From assembly GCF_001983935.1 (NCBI RefSeq), contig NZ_CP017641.1:8234001-8298000 (forward strand): a stretch of 64,000 nucleotides of DNA, read 5' to 3'. How positions within the stretch are numbered: the stretch's first letter is position 1; every line of letters begins with the position of its first letter. A program made the translations under genes and the position numbers. This document shows positions 41,263-62,093 of the stretch, in pieces. This DNA is from Fuerstiella marisgermanici. GTDB taxonomy: Bacteria > Planctomycetota > Planctomycetia > Planctomycetales > Planctomycetaceae. The notes under the pieces are model-generated. The model was not told the origin of the DNA and did no database searches. It was given only the letters and a program-made list of their open reading frames with translations.

Positions 41263-41281
41263 CGTTTTGACTGAGAAAAGG

Positions 41282-41356
41282 GGTGAGTAACCGGATTTGA
41301 ACCGGCGACCTCCGGAATCACAATCCGGCGCTCTAACCAACTGAGCTATACCCACC
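41282..41356 (-). tRNA. tRNA-His (anticodon GTG)
   Basis: The reverse strand reads as a full cloverleaf. The acceptor starts GGTGGGTA with the extra G-1 of tRNA-His; the D arm is AGCTCAGTTGGTTAGAGC; the anticodon stem CCGGA/TCCGG encloses GTG; the T arm is GGTTCAAATCC. The 3' end continues CCT, so CCA is not encoded. A terminator follows. Confidence 0.96.
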
Positions 41357-45564: not shown

Positions 45565-47135
45565 GTAGCTGTCCATTTCAGCTTGGAGACTGGTCTTTTT
45601 CTGTCGGTTAGATTTTGATACGACAGGTGGATGGACACGGATGTCAGTCAGATCATCGCTGTGGAAGTGAAGCAGCTTGTGCTTAGCCTGCAGCGTGAGG
45701 TTGCGGAGCTGCGGGACGAGAACCGGCGGCTGCGTGATCGGATTGAAGAGCTCGAAGGTAAGAACCCCACAGAGCGACTCGACGAGGCGTTTTCGGTGAC
45801 GGCGGAAGAGAGACGCCGCGCTGAAACGGGCCGCCGAAAAGGTCGCAAAAAACAATCCTCGGCGCGTCGCGGTCGTCGCACAACCGAGCAGAAAGCGGAC
45901 AACGCCGAACGACGCGAACTCATTCTGCCGGAAGGTTACAACGTCGCAGAGTGCCGTTTCGTTCGGGAACGTTTCGTCTGGAGAGTGATCAACGGCCAAG
46001 CCGTGCAGGTCGTCTATGAAATCTATCACGGCCCCAACGGCGAGAAATCCGAAATTCCGGGCGTGTGGCCGCGGTCCGAATTCGGCATTGAAGTTCATAT
46101 CGCGCTGGCTCGCATTGTGACCATCACGGGACTGTCGATCGACAAGACGTGTGCATTGATTGAATTCTTCTGGAATCTGCCGCTCGGCAAATCCCAGGCG
46201 GACGCTCTGTTGAATCAACTGGCACGGCGTTGGGAACAGGAATTCGAATCTCTGTGTGACCTGATGGCGTTCAGTGCGATTGTGCATGCAGACGAAACCA
46301 GTTGGAGTATCAACAGCGTGTGGGCTTTTTTGTCGGAGAAGGCGCGCGTGCTGATCTTCGGATGCCGCAAAGACGGCGACACACTGGCTCAGATCCTGTC
46401 GAAAGAATTGTTTGGAGGCGTGCTTGTTTCGGACGATGCGGCCGTGTACCGAGGTTTCAGTCACGCACAGAAATGCTGGGCTCACCTGCTGCGGAAGGCC
46501 ATCCGTCTGACGCTGCTGAAGCCGGACAACGAAGAGTACCAGCGACTGCTCGACGGCCTGCTGGAAATTTTCTACGCGGCCAAACGCCACGCCGCCGATG
46601 GTCGTCTTGGCGATGCCGGTCGTGCGGCGAAGGTCGATGAACTTGATAACACGCTGGCGGCTCTGCTGGTGCGTTACTGCGCCGAGGATTCCGATGTTCG
46701 GGCGGCCGACTTCGGCAAGGATTTTGACAACCTGGTCTCAGAACTGATTCGGCTGATGACGGAAGAGGAGTTGTTTTGTTTTGTGACAAGCCCGGCCGCG
46801 CCAGCAACGAACAACGAAGCGGAACGCAGTCTTCGCGGCGCGGCCATGGACCGTCGCACAGGTCGAACGAGCAAAACATCGAAGGGAGCCCGTCGCCGCA
46901 GCATTCTTACAAGCGTCCTGGAATCGCTGAATCTCCATCTGAAAACACCAACGCTCAGTTCCGTGGTGGCCGAGGTCATGACGTGGCAGCAGGATGGATT
47001 CAGTCTGTTTGATCGACTGAAACTTGAAGTCGGCCTGACCTCCGCGCCGCCCGGTCAGTCGCGACTGTCCAAACTCGTCCCCGCCAACTGAACACCACAC
47101 CTCACGCTGCGCACCACGCGGAAATGGACAGCTAC
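45565..47135 (+). mobile_element. IS66-family element, transposase-only type
   Basis: A 15-bp perfect inverted repeat GTAGCTGTCCATTTC lies at 45565-45579 and again inverted at 47121-47135. A 9-bp direct repeat GGCATTTGC flanks it at 45556-45564 and 47136-47144, consistent with target duplication of 8-9 bp. The element carries only one transposase gene and no tnpA/tnpB, as in the ISBst12 subgroup of IS66. Intact ends and duplication suggest a recent insertion into the island's left arm. Confidence 0.9.
45631..47091 (+). CDS. IS66-family transposase
   Basis: The 486-aa protein has an N-terminal coiled coil (REVAELRDENRRLRDRIEEL) and a basic zinc-finger-like region, then the DDE domain: HADETSW (first Asp), VSDDAAVYRGF (second Asp) and NNEAERSLRGAAMDRRTGRTSKT (Glu). 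It lies fully inside the inverted repeats of the element. Confidence 0.95.
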   Translation: MDTDVSQIIAVEVKQLVLSLQREVAELRDENRRLRDRIEELEGKNPTERLDEAFSVTAEERRRAETGRRKGRKKQSSARRGRRTTEQKADNAERRELILPEGYNVAECRFVRERFVWRVINGQAVQVVYEIYHGPNGEKSEIPGVWPRSEFGIEVHIALARIVTITGLSIDKTCALIEFFWNLPLGKSQADALLNQLARRWEQEFESLCDLMAFSAIVHADETSWSINSVWAFLSEKARVLIFGCRKDGDTLAQILSKELFGGVLVSDDAAVYRGFSHAQKCWAHLLRKAIRLTLLKPDNEEYQRLLDGLLEIFYAAKRHAADGRLGDAGRAAKVDELDNTLAALLVRYCAEDSDVRAADFGKDFDNLVSELIRLMTEEELFCFVTSPAAPATNNEAERSLRGAAMDRRTGRTSKTSKGARRRSILTSVLESLNLHLKTPTLSSVVAEVMTWQQDGFSLFDRLKLEVGLTSAPPGQSRLSKLVPAN

Positions 47136-47941: not shown

Positions 47942-50900
47942 ATGAACCCAACGGCTACTAAATGCTGCTTCAGCTTAGACGCTATCAACAAGCACGCTGA
48001 AGGACACTGGCGTAAAATCCATACCAGCCTGACTCCACTTACGGAAACCCAACTCAACGGCGGCGATCACCCGTGTCCGGTTTGTGGGGGCGACGACCGC
48101 TTCAATGTTGCTCGCGACGGCGAGTACGAGCGAACGGGAAAAGTTTTCTGCAAAGATTGTGGACTTCATGGCCAACCTGGAATCGGTGTCGTCAAAGTAT
48201 TCGGAAGTCAGCCCTGCAGCACGTTCCCCGAGGCGTGCTTCCAAGTCGGTACTTGGCTGATTGAGCATGGATTTGCAACTGAGAGCGATCTCATGCCGCG
48301 AACCAAGTCAGTCCTTTTGGGTAGCGCGACTCCGAAGCATTATGGTGAAACCCACGAACCGCATCCGACTGTTTCGAAGCAAAGCGATTCCGAAACCGAC
48401 GTCGGTCAACAACTGCCGAAACCGCTTAAGAGCGATAAATACCCAGTGTTTGCAACCGCACGTGAAGCACTTGCAAGTTACTGTGAACTTCGCCCCGGCG
48501 ACAGAACTCACAAATATCACTCAACGCCAGATTGTTGCCCGTTCGTGTTTTCCAGCCGCGTGCATGCCTCAGGGGAAGCGAAGAGGCTCGGTGCTGAGTC
48601 AGTCATTCGCCCCGTACACAAAACAGCGGATGGCTGGCAGGGTGGACTGCAGATGCGGTTGGGGCGGCCCCTCTATGCAAAATTTCCAAGACTTCTCAGC
48701 AGCCACCGTCGATCCATTGGTCAACCGGAACCGCCGAGAAGCTTCACATTCACCATGGAAGTCTCATTCCAGACGGTCCCCGACCTGGCGGATGCGACAC
48801 AAGTCTTTATTTGCGAAGACGAGCGCGACTGCGAAGCGATTCTAACCCTTGGTTTGAACGCCACGACAACCGCTGGCGGGCAGTACGCAATTTGCATGAC
48901 GGACCTACGCGAATTATCTGGCAAAGATCTGATCATCATTCCGAAGCACCATGAGCATCGCAACGCGTACGCTAAGAAGTTTCGCGGCGAGCTGATTAGG
49001 CAGCTTCCGGATACGCCAGTGCAAATAAAATGTCTCGTGGACGATGGCGATTTCAAATCAAGTCGCGGTGACGGCCCCGACGCCTGGCTTAAACACTACC
49101 TCCAGCAACTTGGCCTTCACGATGACGATGGCAACCTTGATACCGAGATGCTCACTGCGCTCTATGAGCAGCTCTTGAAGGTTATTGACGATCTACCAGA
49201 TCGAGCCGGCGAACAAGCATTCGAGCCAGAAGAAATGGGCTCGGTTACTGTGCCCGCCGCCGACCCCACGAAAACTCTCCATCCAGGTCCAGTTGCCGCC
49301 ATGCGTGCTGTCGCGTTCGGCCTCAAACGGAGCGGTATAACTACCACACAGCGAGAACCCGACCGTCATGATCTCTATTTTTCCGGACCAGAACAGCAGG
49401 AAGCAGAGCTGATTTTCGTCAGCATCCGATGGGATCTGACAGCCGAGGAAATCGCCTCCAGCAAAAATGGCAAGACGAAAGAAATTCGACAGGTGTGCAA
49501 AGTTGAAGGCGGCTGGCAGTGTCGAAATATGTATGACGCGGGTCGGCCACTCTTCAAACTATTCCAACCAATCAACGGGACATCTGTATTCGATAGCACC
49601 ACTGCGTTCGTTTGCGAAGGTGAGCCCGCCTGTGAGGCACTCCGGTCAATCGAAGTATTGGCAACAAGTCTCAGCCAGGGGGCCGCCTCACCGCGCAAGA
49701 CTGATTTGTCCCCGCTCAACGGCAAGACGGTTACCTGGCTGCCTGACCATGATGAGGCGGGTGAGAAGTTCGTTCGTGCCTGCCGCGACCAGATGAATGA
49801 GCAAGCACGGGACGCAACAGTGATCGTAAAGTGCCTCAGCGACGATCCTGACTTCGGAGCAGTCATCAAACCCGGCGACGACGCTGTCGACTTGCTGGAA
49901 TTTCATAAAGACAAGACACCGGCTCAGCTGCGAAACATAATCGAGTCACTACCAGACCGCAGTGGTGAACCACGATTCTGGTCAACGGAGGACAAGCTTG
50001 CTCGGATCCCACTGCCCTCAGCCAAGAAGTTGACTGCTACGCGCCAGGATGAGCTGAACGAACTCTTGTGTACGTGCGATTTAGCCTCTGGTGACGCGAA
50101 GGTTCAAGCGGAGCTCGCTGTTTGTGCGTTTGCCATCAAGCACGGTGTCTCAAAGGAGGAAACCGAAGAACACTGGTCCAGCCATGGGGGTGGCACATCA
50201 ACGGATCACTTCCACACGATTTGGGCCCAAGCCGCGAAGGCATTTCGCCAAAATGCCCTGGAAAAGCTCGAAGGGAAATCGAGCAGCAAACGCCAAGAGT
50301 CGTCTACCCGGATTTCCACACCAGCCGACGAACAGGGACCTACAAAAAACAATGCGAGCGAGAAGGATGATGCGAGCTCGATGGACTACGCCACCACCGG
50401 GATTGCATTTCTGACCATCAACTACCGACGCAAAATCGCCGCAAAGGAACATTACACACTTGTCCACTGGAACGGAAGTTTCCATGAATGGTCCGGTGCC
50501 TGGCGGCAAATCGAAGACGCCAAAATCGAGTCGGAGGTTTGGCACTACATTGATGAAACCTACGAGCGGTTCAGTGACAGTGATGTCCGCAATGTCGTCG
50601 CGGCTATCAGGCGAAAGTGCTACCAGTCGAACGAAATCAGCTACAACACGTGGTCCAGTGGTGTGGATCGAGGGTTCCGCATCGCTGTCGATGACGGAAG
50701 CTTGCTTGACCCTGCCCGTGGAACCATCGAGGCCCCTTCACACGATTGGTTCAGTCGAACGATTCTTCCCATCGCGTACGACAAAAATGCTAAGTGTGAG
50801 CTTTGGGAAAAGGTCCTCCTCCAGAACCTGGAGGGCGACATGGACCGCTACAAGCTGCTACAGGAATTTGCTGGCTACTGTCTTTGGTCGGAACTCACCT

Positions 50901-51766
50901 TTCAGAAGTTTCTGATTCTGCTTGGCGAAGGAGCCAACGGAAAATCAGTCTTCCTCGCCGGACTCAGTGCCCTGCTGGGCTTGGACAACATCAGTAACTG
51001 CAACCTGGAGTCACTTACGTCGAACCGATTTGCGACCGTCACAACGCTGGGATGTCTGGCGAACCTGAGCGCCGAAATCTCGAACGTCGATAGAGCCTCC
51101 GAGGGCGTACTCAAGCAGCTTTCGAGTGGTGACATCATGCCATTCGAGCAGAAGCACAAACCAATCGTCTACGCGAAGCCAACGGCAAAGCTCATTTTTT
51201 CGTGCAACGACATGCCCCGTTTCACGGACAAGAGTTTCGGTCTCTACCGCCGGATGATTGTAGTCCCGTTCAACCGAGAAGTTCCGGAGCATGAAAGGAT
51301 CCATGACCTCGACAAACCCCACCGGTGGAAGGACGAACTGCCTGGAATGCTCAACTGGGCGATCGAGGGGCTACAACGGTTACTGGAACAAAAGCAATTC
51401 ACGTATTCCGAAGTATGCCAGGCAGCGCTGACCGACTACAAATTCGAATCGAATCCCGCCGCAGCATTTCTTGAGGAACGGGTCACTCCCGACGGGCGGC
51501 CGAACGTGAGAATCCTCAAACAGGAATTATATAATGCTTATAGCAATTGGTGTGGGCACCACGGTCGTCGACGATTGGGTGACGGCGAATTCGCGAAAGA
51601 GGTCCGCCGCAAATTCAAGGTCAGTGACGCCCGACCAAGCATTGACGGACTGAGGCAACGTGTCTGGCGAGGCATTCGCATGCTCTCCCTGAAAGAGCAA
51701 CGAGAGCGTCTGGATGACGAAGAAGCGGAATCGCAATTAGACCAGTTGCAGAGAGACCTCGACTGA
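47942..51766 (+). CDS. Island primase-helicase with two TOPRIM regions
   Basis: The 1274-aa protein has a zinc ribbon C45/C48/C70/C73 (CPVCGG, CKDCG), a first TOPRIM-like domain (about 285-370: FICEDERDCEA, IIPKHHE at 333-338), a second TOPRIM domain (about 540-640: FVCEGEPACEA, LPDHDEAG with D602/D604), a linker, and a D5/P4-type superfamily 3 helicase (about 945-1200; Walker A GEGANGKS with K1001). The first TOPRIM has His where the DxD aspartates should be, so it looks inactive; the second looks intact. This is the replication protein of an integrative or phage-satellite element. It sits directly before the origin-like stretch. Confidence 0.88.
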   Translation: MNPTATKCCFSLDAINKHAEGHWRKIHTSLTPLTETQLNGGDHPCPVCGGDDRFNVARDGEYERTGKVFCKDCGLHGQPGIGVVKVFGSQPCSTFPEACFQVGTWLIEHGFATESDLMPRTKSVLLGSATPKHYGETHEPHPTVSKQSDSETDVGQQLPKPLKSDKYPVFATAREALASYCELRPGDRTHKYHSTPDCCPFVFSSRVHASGEAKRLGAESVIRPVHKTADGWQGGLQMRLGRPLYAKFPRLLSSHRRSIGQPEPPRSFTFTMEVSFQTVPDLADATQVFICEDERDCEAILTLGLNATTTAGGQYAICMTDLRELSGKDLIIIPKHHEHRNAYAKKFRGELIRQLPDTPVQIKCLVDDGDFKSSRGDGPDAWLKHYLQQLGLHDDDGNLDTEMLTALYEQLLKVIDDLPDRAGEQAFEPEEMGSVTVPAADPTKTLHPGPVAAMRAVAFGLKRSGITTTQREPDRHDLYFSGPEQQEAELIFVSIRWDLTAEEIASSKNGKTKEIRQVCKVEGGWQCRNMYDAGRPLFKLFQPINGTSVFDSTTAFVCEGEPACEALRSIEVLATSLSQGAASPRKTDLSPLNGKTVTWLPDHDEAGEKFVRACRDQMNEQARDATVIVKCLSDDPDFGAVIKPGDDAVDLLEFHKDKTPAQLRNIIESLPDRSGEPRFWSTEDKLARIPLPSAKKLTATRQDELNELLCTCDLASGDAKVQAELAVCAFAIKHGVSKEETEEHWSSHGGGTSTDHFHTIWAQAAKAFRQNALEKLEGKSSSKRQESSTRISTPADEQGPTKNNASEKDDASSMDYATTGIAFLTINYRRKIAAKEHYTLVHWNGSFHEWSGAWRQIEDAKIESEVWHYIDETYERFSDSDVRNVVAAIRRKCYQSNEISYNTWSSGVDRGFRIAVDDGSLLDPARGTIEAPSHDWFSRTILPIAYDKNAKCELWEKVLLQNLEGDMDRYKLLQEFAGYCLWSELTFQKFLILLGEGANGKSVFLAGLSALLGLDNISNCNLESLTSNRFATVTTLGCLANLSAEISNVDRASEGVLKQLSSGDIMPFEQKHKPIVYAKPTAKLIFSCNDMPRFTDKSFGLYRRMIVVPFNREVPEHERIHDLDKPHRWKDELPGMLNWAIEGLQRLLEQKQFTYSEVCQAALTDYKFESNPAAAFLEERVTPDGRPNVRILKQELYNAYSNWCGHHGRRRLGDGEFAKEVRRKFKVSDARPSIDGLRQRVWRGIRMLSLKEQRERLDDEEAESQLDQLQRDLD

Positions 51767-51922
51767 TGCATTCAACCTTCTCGAGTGGTCCAAGTGGTCC
51801 GGCCCGGTCCAAGGTACCAGAATCACCCTGGACCACATTTTCCCCTGCTTTTCTATTGGCGAAACACACTCCGGTCCAAGTGGTCCAGGGTAATTCAAGG
51901 TTAATTAATCGTTATAGATATG

Positions 51923-51969
51923 ACACACGTATACACGTACACGCGTGCACGCGCGCGTACGCGTATATA
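51923..51969. repeat. 47-bp perfect purine/pyrimidine alternation
   Basis: Every base from 51923 to 51969 alternates purine and pyrimidine, mixing CA, CG and TA steps (for example CACGCGCGCGTACGCGTATA). Such tracts readily form Z-DNA or melt. It lies between inverted GGTCCA repeats. Confidence 0.9.
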
Positions 51970-52060
51970 AGAAGTAGTACGAAATCACCTGGACCACCTG
52001 GACCACTTTCACGCGACCAGTGTTTTCATTACTCAGATGCCGATTGCACCCTGGGACTAC

Positions 52061-52100
52061 CTGCCGTGCAGTTGGACCGGCTGCCGTGTAGTTGGACCGG
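52061..52100. repeat. 20-bp tandem duplication with TTGGACCGG
   Basis: Two adjacent 20-bp units (52061-52080, 52081-52100) differ at one base and both end TTGGACCGG, carrying the same TGGACC core as the sites upstream. Confidence 0.85.
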
Positions 52101-52365
52101 CTCAGCGGCAAACTGCTCTGGTAATGAAAGAATCGGATGAATGGGAGGTTTGGGGCGTGTTTGCAGAGTGCGAGATCTGCTGGCGCGATCCATTGCAAAA
52201 AATGTTTCAGCCTCTCCCCGCCCAAAAAATCGACTGCCGAGCTGGCATGCGGGTCGGCGCAAACTCAACCCCATCAGCACCTTGCCTTTAAAGTGGATTC
52301 GTTTATCCACTTTTACTGAGTAGGTGTAAATTTACCCACTCGCCGTATCCCAAAGGGGCCGAACC

Positions 52366-52779
52366 ATGGATTTCGATAACACCTTTGACGCTCACCTCAT
52401 GGAACTGCTGGAAACCGATTTCGGTCATGGGTTTAAACATCGCCATATGATGGAGTTCTGCTACCTGCTCGATCAGATTGTCCGACGCGGGCTGCCAATA
52501 TCGATCAAACAACACACGACGGTCGACTTGACGCTCAAAACGAAAATTGCCGGTGCCCAATGCAAGTTCAGCGAGCGATCAAACGGCTACCTTCGCGAAT
52601 TGTTCCGGATCGGCAGAAGCATATTTCCAAGCGATTTTAAGAATCAACTTATGGCTGAAGCCAAGGGGCGATTGGACGAATCCAGGTTTCAGCTAAACCG
52701 ACTGATTGAAACTCGAGATGCGTGGAACGCGTACGAGCAGAATCGGCTTGCCATCGGAACTCTTCGGCGGAGGCGATGA
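52366..52779 (+). CDS. Island protein of unknown function
   Basis: The 137-aa charged helical protein (opening MDFDNTFDAHLMELLE) has an Arg-rich tail. It has no signal or membrane part. It is convergent with the recombinase gene, ten bases away. I do not recognise a family. Confidence 0.6.
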   Translation: MDFDNTFDAHLMELLETDFGHGFKHRHMMEFCYLLDQIVRRGLPISIKQHTTVDLTLKTKIAGAQCKFSERSNGYLRELFRIGRSIFPSDFKNQLMAEAKGRLDESRFQLNRLIETRDAWNAYEQNRLAIGTLRRRR

Positions 52780-52788
52780 TTCAGGCCA

Positions 52789-53370
52789 TCAATTCGCATG
52801 CAAGTATCGCTGAACAGTTCGTCGAGAAATCCCCAGTGCTATCGCAATCTCGGCATCCGACAAGCCTCGCGCTCGCAGTTCTTTCGCACGCTTCGGCTTG
52901 GCTTTCAAAGTGCCGCGTTTTCGGCCACTGTAGATACCGCGCTCCTTCGCTGCAGCGATGCCGGCCGCCTGCCTTTCCCGGATGGACTCGCGTTCCATCT
53001 CAGCAATTCCCAGCAAGACAGCAGCCAGCATCTTGCCGACCGCGCCGTTGAAATCGATTTGCTGGGTGACTGAGACAACTCGCAAGCCGCGATCGCACCA
53101 ATCCGCCAAAGTGTTGATCCCGTCGCGCAGGTTGCGGCTGAGACGGTCGAGCTTCCACACCGCGATGGCATCGACCTCTCCATTGAAAACAGCACGTTGC
53201 AATCGTTCGAATGCAGGTCGATGCAGATCTTTGCCGCTCGCCTTGTCGACGAACCACTCAACCGAGTCTGCCGGAACCCCGTTACCATCAAGCCATCGCC
53301 GAAGCTCGCGTTCCTGGGCGGATGTGTTTTGGTCCGTGCTTGAAACTCGAACGTAAATTCCCCATCGCAT
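52789..53370 (-). CDS. Serine recombinase (resolvase/invertase type)
   Basis: The 193-aa protein has the catalytic Ser in YVRVSSTDQN (S10), KLDRLSRNLRDGI (Arg pair), EMERESIRERQAAGI (helix E), and a C-terminal helix-turn-helix (LSDAEIAIALGISRRTVQRYL). It is the small resolvase/invertase size, so it may resolve multimers or invert DNA rather than integrate. The start at 53370 has GGGGAG upstream; a TTG eight codons earlier lacks one. Confidence 0.92.
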   Translation of the reverse strand: MRWGIYVRVSSTDQNTSAQERELRRWLDGNGVPADSVEWFVDKASGKDLHRPAFERLQRAVFNGEVDAIAVWKLDRLSRNLRDGINTLADWCDRGLRVVSVTQQIDFNGAVGKMLAAVLLGIAEMERESIRERQAAGIAAAKERGIYSGRKRGTLKAKPKRAKELRARGLSDAEIAIALGISRRTVQRYLHAN

Positions 53371-53514
53371 TTTCGTTGTCTCCCCTGTTGCCAAAAACGG
53401 TGTACCTCAACTGGCACACCTTCCAGCAGCTAAAACGCCGGATGATTTCCAGCGGTTTTGGGACCGCCGAAGCCGGGACTCTTTTTGTCACAGGGCTGGC
53501 CGATAGCGGCGCAC

Positions 53515-53551
53515 AAAAAAGCCCGCCACCAGTAATCGCCGGTGACGGGCT
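53515..53551 (-). terminator. Terminator of the clamp-loader-like gene
   Basis: On the minus strand a 13-bp stem with two G-U pairs precedes T6 (A-run 53515-53520), about 20 bp past the stop at 53572. Confidence 0.85.
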
Positions 53552-53571
53552 GCAAGTCGAATTGCAGGACC

Positions 53572-54273
53572 TCAGCAGCCCGCGAAACTCAGCGTCTGCG
53601 ATTCCAGAATCTCAACCGCTTGCTCTGGCAGAAACTCGCCAGCGTCCAATCGGCTCAGCATTTTTCGTAGATTGAATTCGCATTGGGCAGCGAGGCGAAC
53701 GTAGGCGACCAGCTCCTGGCCGGATTCGAGCCCTTCATCAACGGCAATCTGCATCGCCCTTTGGGCAAACAGCGTGGCGTATCGTTCGCCTTCCAGCTCA
53801 AAAACCGTACATCGGCTTTCGAGTGCGCCAGAATCGGCATCATCGAACAAACCAATCTGTTTCTGCCGAACACCTTGGGTGGTAAAGATCCACGCCTCGT
53901 GACTTCGAATGTCTTCGAGACAAGTCAGAAGCCTGCCAATGACGCGAGAATCCAATTTGTGGCATTCGTTAATGACGTGGACCTTGCCGGGTTTATTGCC
54001 AAGTAGAAGCTGGCCGCGCTTGCTGACGATGTCATCGATGCCGGACGTTGTCACCTTCGAGCCATCGATTTCAACAACATTATCCGGATCGCATATCTCA
54101 CGAGCGAGGATGTACGCCACGGATGATTTTCCGACGCCGGATGGACCGGTGAATAGAAACGCCCGCCCACCGATATCCCCGGCAGTTGCCATGCGGATCA
54201 GCCTCAGCTTCATGCGAGCGTGGCCGACAACATCATCCCAACATTGGGGGCGGTACTTCGTGAACAAATTCAT
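53572..54273 (-). CDS. Clamp-loader-like AAA+ ATPase (DnaX/RFC type, short)
   Basis: The 233-aa protein opens like clamp-loader subunits (FTKYRPQCWDDVVGH) with Walker A GPSGVGKS at 43-50, and HVINECHKL in place of a Walker B DExH. CLEDIRSHEAWIFTT resembles the sensor-1 strand. It lacks the C-terminal DnaX domains. An element-coded loader for DNA replication or helicase handling is likely. ATG 54273 has CTGGAGACCACC directly upstream. It is flanked by its own terminator. Confidence 0.78.
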   Translation of the reverse strand: MNLFTKYRPQCWDDVVGHARMKLRLIRMATAGDIGGRAFLFTGPSGVGKSSVAYILAREICDPDNVVEIDGSKVTTSGIDDIVSKRGQLLLGNKPGKVHVINECHKLDSRVIGRLLTCLEDIRSHEAWIFTTQGVRQKQIGLFDDADSGALESRCTVFELEGERYATLFAQRAMQIAVDEGLESGQELVAYVRLAAQCEFNLRKMLSRLDAGEFLPEQAVEILESQTLSFAGC

Positions 54274-54363
54274 GGTGGTCTCCAGTCGGTGAGTTCGAAC
54301 CGGCCCGGCGACGTTGCCTGGCCAACCGTCGAAACGTCGTGATGCCAGCGGTTGTCGGCGCAT

Positions 54364-54397
54364 AAAAAAGCCCTGCCGCACCGAAGCACGACAGGGC
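54364..54397 (-). terminator. Terminator with UUCG loop after the ArdC-like gene
   Basis: On the minus strand a 12-bp stem closes a C(UUCG)G tetraloop and is followed by T6 (A-run 54364-54369). It lies about 34 bp past the stop at 54431. Confidence 0.9.
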
Positions 54398-54430
54398 CAC
54401 CCCACGCGGAGACCAATCCGCAGGGTTGAG

Positions 54431-55360
54431 TCAAGTTGTCATGGAGCCGACGACGAGTGGTTGCTTTTCGGTTGAATCTTCCTTTGCTTCAAACTTCCTT
54501 CCGAGAATCATGTCGGCAGCTTTCTGAGCAGCACCGGCAGCGGAAGCGATCAGCCGTTTGTCTCCTTTCAGAACTCGAATCCAGCCATTCAGGTATGCTG
54601 CCGAATTCTCAATCGTGTCTGATTCAATTCCGCATTCCCCGCACAGGAACGCGGCACCGAGTTCAGCAATCAGTTCCTCTTTCGCATACGGATCCGTGCC
54701 GAATCCGCCAGACTCGAATCGGTTCAGGCGATCGGTGTGGCCCGTGCTATGAGCCAATTCGTGAAACAGCGTTGAGTAGTACTCCGCTGAAGCTTCGAAC
54801 CGATCTCGATCAGGCATCAGCAAAGAGTCATCGGAAGGACAATAAGCCGCACGGTTTCCGCCGTGGTTAATCCGGTTCCGAAGCCCCGATGATTCGAGCC
54901 ACGTGTCGGCAATGCGCTCGGCGTTCTCAATGGCCTCCCACTCGCTGGGTTCGTAAATGTCTGGCTCAGCTTTCAGTTTCGATTCATCGAGTTTCTTGCA
55001 CTGCTCAACATTAAAAACGCGGTAGTACCGTAGCAGCGGAATTCTCTTCACCTCGCCAGTGTCCCCATCAGCTTTCTCCAGCCACTTCCAGAACACAACG
55101 AGTGACGACGACTCGCCTTTCTTCACTGTCCCTCCAGCATCCTTCGCTTGTTTGAACGTCAGCCAACGGTGGTCCTTGTAGCCGTTGCTGATCTTTGCAA
55201 CTTCCAACAGGAACGGGTTGATGCCACGATAGTGCGAGCCGGTTCTGCCGTTGCAGGGATGCAGGTTTTGCCCCTTCCACGGTTTTCGCCACGGGACGGT
55301 TCCCCGTTCAAGTAACTCAACTACGCGGTCCGTCACCATTTCATAAACATCGACTTTCAT
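54431..55360 (-). CDS. ArdC-like antirestriction protein with zincin domain
   Basis: The 309-aa protein has the ArdC N-terminal domain (VPWRKPWKG, RGINPFLL) and a C-terminal metallopeptidase motif H200-E-L-A-H204 (FHELAHSTGH), then EELIAELGAAFLC. ArdC proteins protect incoming mobile DNA from restriction. Start 55360 has CTGGAGACCACTG upstream, the same leader as the clamp-loader-like gene; 36 codons before it are not needed. Confidence 0.88.
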   Translation of the reverse strand: MKVDVYEMVTDRVVELLERGTVPWRKPWKGQNLHPCNGRTGSHYRGINPFLLEVAKISNGYKDHRWLTFKQAKDAGGTVKKGESSSLVVFWKWLEKADGDTGEVKRIPLLRYYRVFNVEQCKKLDESKLKAEPDIYEPSEWEAIENAERIADTWLESSGLRNRINHGGNRAAYCPSDDSLLMPDRDRFEASAEYYSTLFHELAHSTGHTDRLNRFESGGFGTDPYAKEELIAELGAAFLCGECGIESDTIENSAAYLNGWIRVLKGDKRLIASAAGAAQKAADMILGRKFEAKEDSTEKQPLVVGSMTT

Positions 55361-55464
55361 CAGTGGTCTCCAGAGTGTTGGCAAAATGAAAAGACGACGA
55401 CCGGAGCATTGCCAGCTACCCCGAATCGCCACCCAATAAAACGCCCTGATGAGAGCACCAGTCC

Positions 55465-55665
55465 TCACTCACCGAGGCGTGTCATCTGTTCGCAAATCGC
55501 CACTGCCGCCGGGACTGCGAACGCACCGCACGTTTGCAACTGATCAGGTGCAGAGCCGCCGTTCCGCAGCCACTGCTTCAAGTCTTCAGCCGCCTCGCCA
55601 ACTTCATTCCAGTCGTTCAGCTCGAACGCTTCAGCCATTCGTCTGAAGCACGCCGTTGGGTCCAT
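55465..55665 (-). CDS. Small acidic island protein
   Basis: The 66-aa protein (MDPTACFRRMAEAFEL) is acidic and helical, with GAGGAG 8 nt before the ATG. It lies about 100 bp upstream of ArdC, same strand. The family is unknown. Confidence 0.6.
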   Translation of the reverse strand: MDPTACFRRMAEAFELNDWNEVGEAAEDLKQWLRNGGSAPDQLQTCGAFAVPAAVAICEQMTRLGE

Positions 55666-56502: not shown

Positions 56503-57090
56503 ATGCAAACATACTCAGACGAACAATTCACAAGCTTGATCTCAAACGGCGCAGCGCCATCGGCCGTTATCCAGGCGGCTGGCGAAAATGTGCCCTTCGA
56601 CGTCCTGCTTTCCTGGGCGAAATCTCGGGAGAACATCCCGCAGAAGATCGCAGGCTTCACGGCCGAGGCCAAGGCACGGAAGGCAGCCGCAGAGAACGCA
56701 CCGGTCAAGCTCAGACCGGGTCGCGACGAAGGAGTCATATTGAAGGCAGGCAAGAATCGCGGAAAACCTGGCCAGGCAACTGGGGCAGTTCTGGAGATTG
56801 CCGGAGCCCCGCGAGTGTTCCTCGCATGCACGGCTGGGCAAGTGGCATCAGTCCTGGCGAATCCAATGCTGTCGCTCAAACTCGCCATAGAAATGGACCG
56901 AGGCGAACACGATGGTCGCGGCTACGTGCGAGACGCCGAATATTCAGCGCTCAGCAGCCTTGAGAAGCTCTGGACCACATACCAACCACTCAACGTTGAG
57001 ACGCTTTTGCAGGCCGCACAGCAATCCCACAGCCCCCAGCATGAGGCATCAGCGGCGTCAGTCGGTCAAAGTGTCTCACAGGCAGCCTGA
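56503..57090 (+). CDS. Island protein of unknown function
   Basis: The 195-aa protein (MQTYSDEQFTSLISNG) has a charged helical first half and a small alpha/beta-like middle (PGQATGAVLEIAGAPRVFLACTAGQVASVL). The Ser/Gln/Ala-rich C-terminus is likely disordered. A frame extending 27 codons upstream from a TTG was rejected. The Shine-Dalgarno is weak. Confidence 0.55.
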   Translation: MQTYSDEQFTSLISNGAAPSAVIQAAGENVPFDVLLSWAKSRENIPQKIAGFTAEAKARKAAAENAPVKLRPGRDEGVILKAGKNRGKPGQATGAVLEIAGAPRVFLACTAGQVASVLANPMLSLKLAIEMDRGEHDGRGYVRDAEYSALSSLEKLWTTYQPLNVETLLQAAQQSHSPQHEASAASVGQSVSQAA

Positions 57091-57439
57091 CAAGCTGCGA
57101 AGTAACTCGGACGAACTCAGACACGGCAATCGGAAACGGTTGCCGTGTTTTCGCGTGCGCACTGCTGGAAATCGGAAACCAACAAGCCGAAGGCTGATTC
57201 ATTGTGCAAACGAGCGAGCCCAATTCGCGCGTTCTTACCAGCCTGAACTCAAATCAAAGTTGTCGAAAGGGGGTGGCCCTTCCCCACTAAGCGCAGGATA
57301 GCTATTTACCTCGCTCGCCCGAAATTTTTCAGATTTCAAACACCTTACCCAATCATTGGGTAAGGTGGCCTGTCTGCTATTCGCGAGAGCGAATACATGG
57401 ACTTTCATTGTCCGGAATTCCATTTGCGACAATGTCGCT
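57091..57439. other. Gap with an odd palindrome; no gene seen
   Basis: About 350 bp lie between the last island gene and the lipoxygenase stop. It holds a perfect 13-bp inverted repeat CACCTTACCCAAT/ATTGGGTAAGGTG around a single C (57341-57367) and a 7-bp hairpin with GAGA loop at 57378-57395. Confidence 0.6.
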
Positions 57440-59029
57440 TTACACGCTGGTGCTGTTGGGTACATGAATCGGCATCAGGTATGGATACGGAACTGCTCGA
57501 TCGAGGTTACGGCGAAATATCTCGGCATTGATCTGGCCCAGGGCACACTGAAACTCGTGAATGATCTCCTCCAAATCTGGGTCGTTATCAGTGTCGAAGT
57601 CTTTGGGTTCGTAATAACCGAGGATGTCGTACTTTAGCGAGCTGAGAGCATACATGAGTCCGGTTTGGCGAAAACTGGCGTGCAGGTTGGGGAGAAAATT
57701 GTCGAACGGAAAATGAGGGTTGTCGCCCGTTGGGAACTCCTGAAACATGGAGAACGGCGCGTTGGCCACAAATCCGAAGTGGTCCCACTGGCTGAAATTC
57801 AGGGCTGCATGGAGTGGTCCCGATGACCAGATGATTCTCGTCAGCATTTTTGCCAGTGACTTTATGTCCTGAATTCGGTCGACGCCGTCAATGCGACCTT
57901 CGCCGGACAACTCACTAGTAAAGTTTTGCAACTCGATATCGTCGATGATTAGTTGATCATCTTGGTAGTAGTGCTCTACGTAGGCCAGTGTGAAATTTGT
58001 GATTGCGTCCCAGAGCAGCTTGCCATCATCTCGGTATGGATAGTCGACGTTTACATCCTGTGCGTCATCATCATCTTTTGACATCTGCCGTGTACGTACC
58101 TCCTCATCCCAGTCGGCGAGCACTTTGAAATCGTAGCTGCGTCTAGCGACCTCCAAAATTCCGTGAGAGCCTTCGACAAGTGGTGGTGCAAGTAGCTGGT
58201 CGATGTTGTCACCTTCGTTGAACAGAAACGCGTCTACTTGATCATTGATTGCCAGTAACATGCGGAGGTGTGGTCGTAGCAGAATCAGCACGGGATGGTC
58301 CGTGTGAAACGTTCGCTCCGCTGCCACTTTCACGGCTTCCAGAACGAAGTGGCACCGCATTGCATGGCTGTCCAGTTCATGAATCTGCGCGTCCGCGCTT
58401 TGCACTGCCAACTTGGCAATTGGCCAAAGCTTCGGATGCTTGGGTGTAATCACGTCAGCATTGACTCGTCGCTCGATTTGAATTCCAACTGGTCGCATCT
58501 GTCCATTCGTTCCACTGCCTTCCCAGTAGAACAGCGCAATAGGAGCTTCGAAATATTTGACGGCAGCAGGGATGATGGGGTTGATCTCAGGGATCGCCGA
58601 ACTTAGTCCCATGCCGCTGAGTTCGGTAAAATCTGCAAGGATTTCGTAATCGCAAATGAATATGCGACCTTCGTCGATGGCCGGCTCAAGTTTTACGCCA
58701 ATGACCTCAACAATATGTTCATCTTTGAAGGCGGTTTCCTTCAAGTCCTCAATCTTCTGCACGCGTTTAATGACCAACGGGTTGGCACCAGCCAATCGCT
58801 GTCGACCAAAGTAGGTGTCGTCCACATAATGCTCCACGCTGATCGGAGTGGGAATGTGAGTAAACATGTTGGAGATATCGAGCAGGCCCTGCGGACTGGT
58901 CAACTGACCGCCGAATACACCGGACACCAGATTTGCAACCTGCTCAACTTCTGCCACCAGTTCGTCAAACCTTTCCTGCCAGCGACCTGTCGGTTTGTCC
59001 AGTTCTGGCAGCAGGCCCTGACCGGACGG
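57440..59029 (-). pseudogene. Lipoxygenase, large 3' part (interrupted by IS1380)
   Basis: About 528 codons of a bacterial lipoxygenase. Counting from an in-frame ATG in the IS end (59062, a 540-aa reading), the iron ligands are H233 and H238 (SHAMRCH), H418 and N422 (HAALN), and the C-terminal carboxylate of V540 (usually Ile). FGRQRLAGANP, HELDSH and HPVLILLRPHLR are further family blocks. The enzyme dioxygenates polyunsaturated fatty acids. The first 40 codons lie across the IS at 60753-60872. The IS-supplied ATG might still allow a slightly shortened, possibly active protein. Confidence 0.88.
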
Positions 59030-59031
59030 CC

Positions 59032-60752
59032 CTAGCCCGGAAATCTCACACAGAGAATGCACAAAACCGCCTCTGCGTGCGTAAGTCTTTTGTGAGAAGG
59101 ATTTACGTCAACATCAGGAGGCGGTTTTGTGGTGACAGAGTGTAGCAGAGAGAAGTTGTTATTCGAGGGTCACGGTCGGCGAGAAGTTTGTGCCGCGTTT
59201 GATGGTGGAAAGATCACGTCAGATGGTGGCGGGTTGTTGTTGCGGGAAGTCGAAGAGCGGTTTGGTATCCTTCGATCGTTCACGGCGAGCTTTACGGATC
59301 ATCGAAGTGAGCACAGTGAGTTCTCAGTCGAAGAACTGTTGCGGCAGCGAGTCATGGGAATCGCTCTGGGCTATGAAGATCTGAACGATCACGAGCAGTT
59401 GCGACATGATCCTCTGCTGGCTCTGATGTGCGGGCGACGAGATATCACCGGACAGGATCGTGCTGCCGAATGCAGCAAAGGTGTTCCGCTGGCCGGGAAG
59501 AGCACGCTCAATCGGTTGGAACTCACGCCGGTTGGGGCGACCAAAAACAGTCGCTACAAAAAGATCGTCGCCAGTGTTTCCACACTTCAGGATACTCTGG
59601 TCGATGTTTTCATTCGCATGCGAAGCAAGCAAGGTGTGCCGACGGAACTCGTGCTTGATCTCGACGCCACGGATGATCCGGTGCACGGCGATCAGCTCGG
59701 GAAATTTTTCCACGGCTACTACAAAAGCTACTGCTTTCTGCCGTTGTATACGTTCTGCGGCGGCTGGCCGCTCGGCGCCGTGCTGCGTCCTTCAAACATT
59801 GACGGCTGTGCGGGAACGGTGAAAGAACTCGAACGCATCGTTCCCAGGCTGCGAGCCGCATGGCCGAACGTTCGGATGATCGTTCGAGCGGACGGTGGTT
59901 TTTGTCGCGACAATATTCTCGCCTGGTGCGAGAAAAACCGTGTCGATTACATCATTGGCCTGGCAAAGAACAAGCGTCTTGTGAAGGCAATCGGGGGCGA
60001 ACTTCAGCAGGCGAAGGTTCAGTTTGAAGCAACGGGCGAAGCGGCTCGGGTGTTCAAAGATTTTCGGTATCGCACGAAGGAGACATGGTCATGCGAACGC
60101 CGAGTCATCGGCAAAGCCGAACATCTTCGCAAAGGAGCCAACTCGCGTTTCGTCGTCACCAGTCTTTCGCTCGAACGCGTCGACGCACGTATGCTGTACG
60201 AAGATCGTTACTGCGCGCGGGGCGACATGGAAAACCGGATCAAGGAACAGCAGCTTTATCTGTTCGCGGATCGCACGAGCACTCACAACATGCGTTCGAA
60301 TCAACTGCGGTTGCTGTTCTCGACGATGGCGTATTTGCTGCACCACGTGCTGCGGGAATTCGGCCTGGCGGGGACCGAGATGCAGAACGCTCAGGCGGGC
60401 ACAATTCGTTCGAAGCTGCTGAAGATCGGCACGAAGATTCAGGTGAGCGTTCGGCGCGTGGTGATCAGCTTTTCCGAATCATATCCGTACCAGCCACTGT
60501 TCGAACGAGTCCTTGCTAATCTCCGCCGCCACAGACCGCAGGTCATGCAGGTCTGATTTCAGTGCGACAACATGAGATTCCTCAGCCGGCTTCGAAGATC
60601 GGTGACGCACCGCTGCGCGCGTCTGGAAATGTACGAAGCCACGATCCCAATTTCGGTCGAATGGGCCTCAGATTCATACCAGGATCTCAACGCCAACGAA
60701 ATTCTACCACCGCCGCCTACTCAACCCCGATCGCGTGAGACATCCGGGCTAG
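59032..60752 (+). mobile_element. IS1380-family element inside the lipoxygenase gene
   Basis: Terminal inverted repeats (17 bp, 15 identical) lie at 59032-59048 and 60736-60752: CTAGCCCGGA..TCTCA. The element carries one transposase gene. The flanking gene pieces share CCG (gene strand), compatible with a short target duplication, and join in frame there. The length of 1721 bp fits IS1380. Confidence 0.87.
59129..60556 (+). CDS. IS1380-family transposase
   Basis: The 475-aa protein begins (GTG) MVTECSREKLLFEGHG and has the IS1380 pattern: TSDGGGLLLREVEE, LDLDATDDPVHGDQ, VRADGGFCRDNIL and ARGDMENRIKEQQ with catalytic Asp/Asp/Glu. CAGGAGG lies about 8 nt upstream. It has full length and no frameshift. 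Confidence 0.94.
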   Translation: MVTECSREKLLFEGHGRREVCAAFDGGKITSDGGGLLLREVEERFGILRSFTASFTDHRSEHSEFSVEELLRQRVMGIALGYEDLNDHEQLRHDPLLALMCGRRDITGQDRAAECSKGVPLAGKSTLNRLELTPVGATKNSRYKKIVASVSTLQDTLVDVFIRMRSKQGVPTELVLDLDATDDPVHGDQLGKFFHGYYKSYCFLPLYTFCGGWPLGAVLRPSNIDGCAGTVKELERIVPRLRAAWPNVRMIVRADGGFCRDNILAWCEKNRVDYIIGLAKNKRLVKAIGGELQQAKVQFEATGEAARVFKDFRYRTKETWSCERRVIGKAEHLRKGANSRFVVTSLSLERVDARMLYEDRYCARGDMENRIKEQQLYLFADRTSTHNMRSNQLRLLFSTMAYLLHHVLREFGLAGTEMQNAQAGTIRSKLLKIGTKIQVSVRRVVISFSESYPYQPLFERVLANLRRHRPQVMQV

Positions 60753-60872
60753 CGGTTTCATCAATGCCAAACTCGGACTGGGAAGTGACAGGTGCCGCCA
60801 TTGATATTTCTGGGCTTTGGCCAGCACTTGAGATTGACGTTGCGTGTCATTGTTTTCGGGTAGAGATGGCAT
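60753..60872 (-). pseudogene. Lipoxygenase, 5' part (first 40 codons)
   Basis: On the minus strand the frame reads MPSLPENNDTQRQSQVLAKA and ends LALMKP at the IS border. AGGAG lies 7 nt before the ATG (60880-60884), so this is the authentic start. The lipoxygenase-type N-terminus ('LPENND...KYQW') continues in frame with the piece 57440-59029 as ..LMKP+SGQGLL if one CCG is kept, giving 568 aa. Confidence 0.82.
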
Positions 60873-61172
60873 GCAATAGCTCCTGAAGGATGAAGGCTCG
60901 AAATCGTCCTGCCATGTTCACCAGTAGCTGGATGGACAGATAGACGCCCTCTTCGGTGGATGGTGGCACAGGGAGTACCTGAGTACGTTTACCGCACACC
61001 CACCGGGATAGGGACAGCAAATTCGCGCCATTCTGCAAAGACTAGGAATAGCCTGAGCCACTTGAGTTTTATGGTTGTGATATCAAATCCCACCAACGAC
61101 AATTGAGTGGAGCGGATAAGTTTTCCTTCGCAGCAGCATCACGTTTTCGTGTGATCTAATGGGAGTTCCGCT
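60873..61172. other. Upstream stretch of the lipoxygenase; no clear gene
   Basis: A 63-aa minus frame (60847-61038) overlaps the lipoxygenase start and ends ELLHAISTRKQ; no family is seen, so I do not call it a gene. The lipoxygenase promoter is expected here. Confidence 0.45.
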
Positions 61173-61423
61173 ATGCCATACTGCACTCAGTCCACCGGTG
61201 GAAACATGCCCATGGGCGGGTCGCGAGATGCTCGTCCACGAATGAGTGGCCGTGGTCGTTCTGGGAAGGGTGGACTGTCAGTCTTCGAGCGACTTGGTGG
61301 AGCAGCGACTGGCACGCAGCAACCGGTTCCCCAATACAACAGTCAGGGCCACCGGCTCGCTGTTTCCGTGTATGGAGATCCGGGCGATCCTGATGGCGAG
61401 AATGCTGCGGGGGCCGTGCACAA
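61173..61423 (+). pseudogene. Possible 5' end of a small gene cut by an IS remnant
   Basis: ATG at 61173 follows GGGAG at a good distance and starts MPYCTQSTGGNMPMGGS, a Gly/Arg-rich basic sequence. The frame runs into the antisense of the IS701 remnant at about 61424. The family is unknown; it could be chance. Confidence 0.3.
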
Positions 61424-62093
61424 TTCACCTCGCGCATCCAGGCCATCCAGAAACGCGCCGTCACGACCGTACAGTTCGTCGGCCGTCCACGCGATGACTT
61501 CGATGCCGTTGGCCTTCGCACGATCGATCAGGTCCCGTGCAATTTGAGGTTTCGTCTGGAAGACGACATCGTCCGGCACGTGCGTTTTTTCGGCGCGCCG
61601 AATTGTTGGCCCATTCTCCGGGAAGGTAAAAACGCGCGTCCAACCGGCAATCGAAGCCCGGAGCCGAATTGGCCAAAGCCACGTTGTTGACGCAGTCTTC
61701 GATCTTTCCGCGGTTGCCGTAGTACTGTCGCTTAACGCCCGCTGTTTCACGACCACTTTTGGCGGTTCCCGTTTCGTCGATACAGCTGATCGCATCCGGA
61801 TGAGCACGTTCGGTGGCGACGATTTGCTGACAGCGATCACGCAGCATCTGTTGATCCCAGACGATCGATTCGAGAAAACGCTGCAGCGTCCGCGGTGCCA
61901 CGTTTTGATCCACAGCAATCGCTTCCGCATTCTTACGCTGCACGCCGGAAAGCAGCCCACGCACATAGATCTGCAACAGCGTTCGCCCTGCCGGGCAGGA
62001 GAAACGAGTCGGGAACTGGCCGAGCAATTTGCTCAGCTTTGCGATATCCTGCAGCGACATGGGACGACCAACCGTGGTTTCCTCGTGAAACAT
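61424..62093 (-). pseudogene. IS701-type transposase remnant, frameshifted and truncated
   Basis: One frame reads MFHEETTVGRPM ... LLSGVQRKNAEAIA, CIDETGTAKSGRETAGVKRQ and YYGNRGKIEDC, clear IS701/DDE_5 blocks. After an A6 run (T6 on the plus strand, 61585-61590) the sense shifts to another frame, which reads THVPDDVVFQTKPQIARDLI and AWTADELYGRDGAFLDGL. The homology stops at about 61424, so the C-terminal half is missing. Confidence 0.87.

What the first reader, a model, noticed from the sequence alone, without database searches (positions are those of the whole stretch)
57440..60872. A bacterial lipoxygenase gene cut by IS1380 yet reconstructible in frame
Sequence shows a 528-codon 3' part with all iron ligands (H233, H238, H418, N422, C-terminal Val in the 540-aa numbering) and, beyond an IS1380, a 40-codon 5' part with its own AGGAG. 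The two share CCG at the breakpoint and join without a frameshift to 568 aa. Lipoxygenases are patchy in bacteria and linked to oxylipin signalling or host contact; planctomycete cases are little studied. Freshness of the insertion suggests a relative has an intact gene.
Basis: partly seen in the sequence, partly recalled or inferred. Interest (0 to 1): 0.82.

Follow-up and report, generated by a model that had tools for sequence, protein, structure and literature searches.

The report
Lipoxygenase gene split by insertion sequence
A planctomycete bacterium carries a very divergent copy of a known fatty-acid-oxidising enzyme gene (lipoxygenase) that a recently moved insertion sequence has cut in two near its start, so the gene is real but probably switched off in this strain.

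Summary
Window 57440-59035 (-) encodes 531 aa of a lipoxygenase (PF00305, E 3.4e-52) with all five iron ligands. Its start, 41 codons at 60749-60872 (-), lies beyond an IS1380 and resembles other lipoxygenase N-termini (1 of 2000 shuffles scores as high). One detail is wrong: the target duplication is CTAG, not CCG. The frame is still kept, at 571 codons rather than 568. The genome's three IS copies are identical, each with a matched 4-bp duplication, so the insertion is recent and not a chimera. The near relative with an intact version was not found: best identity is about 35% by BLAST-type searches. The gene is a lone long branch, apart from its planctomycete kin (AU p 0.016, group chosen after seeing the tree). 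Two of six active-site clamp residues (Leu258 to Ala, Ala300 "Coffa" to Val) are not seen at their sites in 99 distinct relatives. Best reading: a once-functional, probably horizontally acquired mini-lipoxygenase, now a null allele. New member of a known kind; modest interest.

The parts
57440..59035 (-). 3' part of a lipoxygenase gene: 531 codons + stop, from the duplicated CTAG at the IS edge to the C-terminal Val
   Evidence: PF00305 3.4e-52; CspLOX2 5MED E 2.7e-68; AlphaFold2 pTM 0.88 and Foldseek TM 0.87 to CspLOX2; all four for the 540-aa ORF that holds it
60749..60872 (-). 5' part: ATG + 40 further codons + 1 nt, ending in the other CTAG copy; AGGAG 7 nt before ATG
   Evidence: sequence; N-terminal profile of 58 lipoxygenases, 9.7 bits, 1 of 2000 shuffles reach it; no Pfam match on its own
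59036..60748 (+). IS1380-family insertion sequence, 1713 bp, imperfect terminal inverted repeats starting CCCGGA
   Evidence: 3 identical copies in the genome
59129..60556 (+). IS1380 transposase, 475 aa
   Evidence: PF13701 2e-145; NF033539 7.6e-111, over cut-off
59032..59035 (.). target-site duplication CTAG, copy next to the 3' part
60749..60752 (.). target-site duplication CTAG, copy next to the 5' part
59036..59062 (-). IS end that gives the 540-aa ORF its GTG and 9 foreign codons; a GAGG lies 7 nt upstream
   Evidence: expression not shown

Best explanation
The window holds a PLAT-less "mini" lipoxygenase of the CspLOX2 type. When whole it would be a non-haem iron enzyme, probably cytosolic (no signal peptide seen by eye; not tested), that inserts O2 into 1Z,4Z-diene fatty acids to give hydroperoxides. 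An IS1380 element moved into the CTAG at codons 41-42, in the opposite orientation. It separates start codon and ribosome site from the 531-codon catalytic part, so this genome most likely makes no normal enzyme. Shown by sequence: family, predicted fold, ligands, split, duplication, identity of the IS copies. Inferred: loss of activity, recent date, horizontal origin, and an unusual product specificity from the altered clamp (Ala234, Val276).
For: PF00305. Ligands. Fold. N-piece match. Matched 4-bp duplications at 3 of 3 identical IS copies. No stop in 531 codons. Departures from near-invariant columns are 5 of 52; the seven other representatives at 45% best identity or less have 1 to 9 (L040 1, L104 3, L030 4, L098 4, L029 5, L032 6, L111 9), so there is no sign of decay before the insertion. 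Best identity 35%, end branch 2.05. AU p 0.016 against placing it with 16 planctomycete rows. Five FA_desaturase genes in the genome could supply unsaturated lipids. The codon score (0.027) lies below all eight reference genes (0.048-0.164), near primase (0.017) and ArdC (0.042) of the mobile-type neighbourhood.
Against: No transcript, protein or product data. Its place in the tree is unsure (long branches meet). The AU test shares the model's bias, and the group was named after the tree was seen. No pfaD-type PUFA synthase match, and no desaturase was shown to make dienes, so the substrate is unknown. Two usually conserved clamp residues differ, which could also mean reduced activity. The codon and GC difference is small, the reference genes were scored against their own pool, and other mobile genes score higher (AAA 0.081, IS66 0.180). 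The N-piece score is low in absolute terms.
Confidence: 0.86

Rival explanations
1. The 3' part is still translated, as a 540-aa protein starting at GTG 59062 inside the IS end, and keeps some activity without the native N-terminus.
For: Open frame 57440-59062; GAGG 7 nt before the GTG; the model of the 540-aa form still folds as a lipoxygenase, pTM 0.88.
Against: No sigma-70-like promoter was found on the minus strand of 57000-61400 (weak test, other promoter types not covered). The GAGG is, by eye, part of an inverted repeat within the IS. Residues 1-5 and 10-20 of the model (and 149-158) are below pLDDT 50. 41 native residues are missing.
Confidence: 0.08
2. The insertion is reversible: the element leaves by piggyBac-like seamless excision and re-forms the gene in part of the population.
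For: Duplications CTAG, CTAA, TTAG and CCC-starting ends. CTAA and TTAG as rare piggyBac duplications and CCC ends are reported in PMC10813416, which uses IS1380 as outgroup to piggyBac (passages). piggyBac excises seamlessly at its 4-bp duplication (PMC7351741, passages).
Against: No IS-free copy is in the one assembly held. PMC7351741 does not mention IS1380 (0 occurrences), and the passages seen in PMC10813416 and PMC12732532 use IS1380 as outgroup only.
Confidence: 0.04
3. Assembly artefact: flanks were wrongly joined across a repeated IS.
For: Three identical 1713-bp copies could confuse assembly.
Against: Each of the three copies has its own matched 4-bp duplication. Both flanks here encode parts of a lipoxygenase in one frame.
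Confidence: 0.02

Closest known systems
CspLOX2, Cyanothece PCC 8801 lipoxygenase 2 (PDB 5MED)
   Same: PLAT-less, 569 aa against 571 codons here, iron ligands, fold (TM 0.87), four of six clamp residues (Ile296, Leu304, Leu502, Leu506)
   Different: 30% identity in the Foldseek alignment; Leu258 is Ala and Ala300 (Coffa) is Val here; C-terminal Val, not Ile; gene cut by an IS
Planctomycete lipoxygenases of the same family (e.g. loci L015, L023, L007)
   Same: PF00305, same His and Asn ligands
   Different: 31-34% identity for these three; another clade (AU p 0.016); 20 of 169 other family genomes have one or two
IS1380 family
   Same: transposase equivalog NF033539; short inverted repeats; 4-bp duplication
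   Different: no close full-length copy in the 7 other genus genomes searched; 0 of 85 plasmid records with a match cover 80% of it, and the ten listed cover 46-52% at 65-67%

Membership tests
Lipoxygenase (PF00305) | match to the family profile | tested here: met
   178.3 bits against cut-off 23.6
Lipoxygenase (PF00305) | His-His / His / Asn / C-terminal carboxylate iron ligands | tested here: met
   H233, H238, H418, N422, V540 aligned
Lipoxygenase (PF00305) | lipoxygenase fold | tested here: met
   predicted model pLDDT 83.7, pTM 0.88; CspLOX2 TM 0.87
Lipoxygenase (PF00305) | Ala or Gly at the Coffa site | tested here: not met
   Val276; 92 of 99 distinct relatives have Ala or Gly, 7 others, 0 Val. 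This determines stereochemistry and does not define the family.
Lipoxygenase (PF00305) | dioxygenase activity on dienoic fatty acids | not testable with these tools
   needs assay
Lipoxygenase (PF00305) | intact gene in this genome | tested here: not met
   split by IS; only PF00305 match in the genome
IS1380 insertion sequence | DDE transposase of the family | tested here: met
   NF033539 370.7 bits against cut-off 180; PF13701
IS1380 insertion sequence | terminal inverted repeats and short target duplication | tested here: met
   CCCGGA ends, 4-bp duplication in 3 of 3 copies
piggyBac-like seamless excision | precise repair of the donor site | not testable with these tools
   needs PCR or reads

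The most novel reading that the evidence does not exclude
A deep, so far unseen lipoxygenase lineage whose active-site clamp has exchanged sizes (Leu to Ala on one side, Ala to Val on the other). It gives a product pattern unlike known lipoxygenases, and a piggyBac-like IS1380 switches it off reversibly by seamless excision.
Probability: 0.04. Interest if true: 0.65.

Novelty: new member of a known kind. Interest (0 to 1): 0.34.

Why it matters
It adds a lone lipoxygenase branch with a clamp combination not seen in 99 distinct relatives, which can be tested directly in the solved enzyme CspLOX2. It quantifies lipoxygenases in one planctomycete family (21 of 170 genomes), above the figure of under 0.5% of sequenced bacterial species quoted in PMC6612559 (abstract passage; different sampling). 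It also shows that such a gene can be lost by transposition. Otherwise it is an ordinary IS-disrupted gene.

Tried and rejected
Rejected: the shared CCG as breakpoint (duplication is CTAG); a chimera at the repeat (matched duplications at 3 of 3 copies); decay before insertion. A viral or phage origin has no support (one search finds close relatives only). A tRNA-linked island at tRNA-His 41280-41355 was considered: an element at its 3' end would lie on the side away from the gene (inference; no att repeats were searched). Two flanking stretches were searched in the 8 genus genomes. Matches are scattered, the best being 71% over a sulfatase gene in G019; gene order around them was not examined. 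The 63-aa ORF 60847-61038 (-) just upstream has no NCBIfam match, and its last 43 aa have no convincing match in the loci held. Planctomycete lipoxygenase papers: the listings (15 of 28 papers listed; 1 paper) show none on the subject by title; only listings and starts of abstracts seen.

Protein searches look less deeply than the family search: one search found 5 of 392 genomes, 24 of 397.

Counts: one search used 108 relatives with duplicates. One search dropped the partial L021 and 8 duplicates, leaving 99. L042, with gaps in 19 of 49 near-invariant columns, was kept. One search used 48 representatives, window included. One search gives 27-37% identity to the window in a multiple alignment of 21 partly trimmed relatives, a little above the BLAST figures.

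Full report
What is there. On the minus strand, 57440-59035 is the 3' part of a lipoxygenase gene: 531 codons and a stop without interruption. Pfam gives PF00305 at 3.4e-52. The closest solved structure by sequence is CspLOX2 of Cyanothece (5MED, E 2.7e-68). An AlphaFold2 model of the 540-aa ORF as it stands has pLDDT 83.7 and pTM 0.88, and Foldseek's seven best matches are CspLOX2 chains at TM 0.86-0.88. H233, H238, H418, N422 and V540 align with CspLOX2 His257, His262, His449, Asn453 and Ile569 (ligands from passages of PMC5437038). Among 99 distinct relatives the three His and the Asn are kept in 98-99, the missing case being a gapped row.

The other piece. 60749-60872 (-) begins with ATG, has AGGAG 7 nt upstream, and encodes 41 codons plus 1 nt up to the IS edge. 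A profile of 58 non-redundant lipoxygenase N-termini (108 before thinning) gives it 9.7 bits, aligned from its second residue. Of 2000 shuffles, 1957 returned a score; 1 reached it, with 11.1 bits. So the short piece is independently recognisable as a lipoxygenase start, though the score is low in absolute terms and Pfam alone does not match it.

The insertion. The IS spans 59036-60748 (1713 bp). Its transposase is a curated IS1380 equivalog. Three copies in the genome are identical over all 1713 bp and are flanked by CTAG/CTAG, CTAA/CTAA and TTAG/TTAG. Counting CTAG once, the pieces add up to 1716 nt = 571 codons and stop, close to the 569 residues of CspLOX2. Identity of the copies and the open 531-codon frame indicate a recent event; matched duplications make an assembly chimera unlikely. 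One of the other two copies also sits in a long open frame (998 codons across the site within the stretch held).

Is it a normal family member? Pfam finds a lipoxygenase in 21 of 170 genomes of the family, this one included, and in 2 of the 8 genomes of the genus; 0 of 14 control genomes have one. The other genus member's gene (G017) carries one in-frame TAG, in a draft genome. No close homologue was found in what was searched. The 22 family loci are 26-32% identical by BLASTP. Best identities elsewhere are 34-35% in 392 phylum genomes, 34% in 397 class genomes for near full-length matches (35% for a contig-end fragment), 35% in GTDB contigs (best 80 of 164 confirmed places shown) and 32% on plasmids (7 records). 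Phages gave none; a close-relative scan of viral contigs gave none. A multiple alignment of partly trimmed relatives gives up to 37%. In a tree of 100 rows the window's gene is a lone end branch of 2.05 changes per column. It hangs at an unresolved fork (SH-aLRT 87) with a cyanobacterial clade and one Variovorax row, and no starred set holds it. Holding it with 16 planctomycete rows costs 49 log-likelihood units (AU p 0.016), a group named after the tree was seen. Long branches meet there, so horizontal origin is likely but the donor is not identified.

The active site. Of the six clamp residues named for CspLOX2 (Leu258, Ile296, Ala300, Leu304, Leu502, Leu506; passages), two differ: Ala234 for Leu258 and Val276 for Ala300, the Coffa-Brash site. 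At the first site 98 of 99 distinct relatives have Leu and 1 Gly. At the second 48 have Ala, 44 Gly, 4 Ser, and 1 each Asp, Tyr, Glu; none has Val. That the two changes compensate in size is inference; no coordinates were measured. The window departs from 5 of 52 near-invariant columns (one of them the Leu258 site). The seven other representatives with best identity of 45% or less have 1 to 9, which argues against long decay before the insertion.

Context. On one side lie ArdC-like (54431-55468 -), AAA ATPase (53572-54405 -) and DUF5906 primase-like (47942-51766 +) genes, kinds common on mobile elements (recalled), and an IS66 transposase (45631-47091 +). On the other are an IS701-type remnant (61343-62093 -) and a sulfatase (62211 onward). 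The genome has six ArdC-like loci. The lipoxygenase has GC 0.515, GC3 0.585 and codon score 0.027. The eight reference genes have GC 0.528-0.597, GC3 0.590-0.660 and scores 0.048-0.164, measured against their own pool. Primase and ArdC score 0.017 and 0.042, but AAA 0.081 and IS66 0.180. This weakly fits arrival with mobile DNA. Five FA_desaturase genes and no pfaD match leave the substrate open.

Mechanism. When whole: iron-dependent dioxygenation of diene fatty acids, established for the family. Now: transcription and translation from the native start run into an IS of opposite orientation, so a null allele is most likely (inference). Rivals are a truncated 540-aa form from the IS's own GTG and reversible excision. 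The YTAR duplications and CCC ends resemble piggyBac variants (PMC10813416, passages), and piggyBac excises seamlessly (PMC7351741, passages), but no evidence here shows that this IS does so.

Organism. No tool names it. Seven family loci match public contigs titled Planctomycetaceae, Planctomyces or Schlesneria over their last 300 residues, so planctomycete is supported. Genome 8,920,478 bp in one contig.

Verdict. Observation confirmed with corrections. The finding is a new, divergent member of a known family, disrupted by an ordinary insertion sequence. What lifts it above routine is the lone branch and the unusual clamp.

Noticed in passing
L145 (G000:C1:4471870-4473582): Another identical IS1380 copy interrupts a long open frame, 998 codons across the site within the stretch held.
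   Followed up: partly
L008 (G017 contig 335): The only other lipoxygenase gene in the genus has one in-frame TAG, so both genus copies look broken, though one is in a draft genome.
   Followed up: partly
L002 and L023 (G160 contig 504): Two lipoxygenase genes of different clades lie on one contig about 3.6 kb apart in opposite orientation.
   Followed up: no
window 61343-62093: IS701-type transposase remnant in two overlapping frames; the larger piece scores 116 bits against cut-off 150.
   Followed up: partly
window 47942-55468: Primase-like DUF5906, AAA and ArdC genes suggest a mobile region; ArdC has five further loci in the genome.
   Followed up: partly
window 60847-61038: 63-aa ORF on the minus strand overlapping the lipoxygenase start by 26 nt; no NCBIfam match.
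   Followed up: partly
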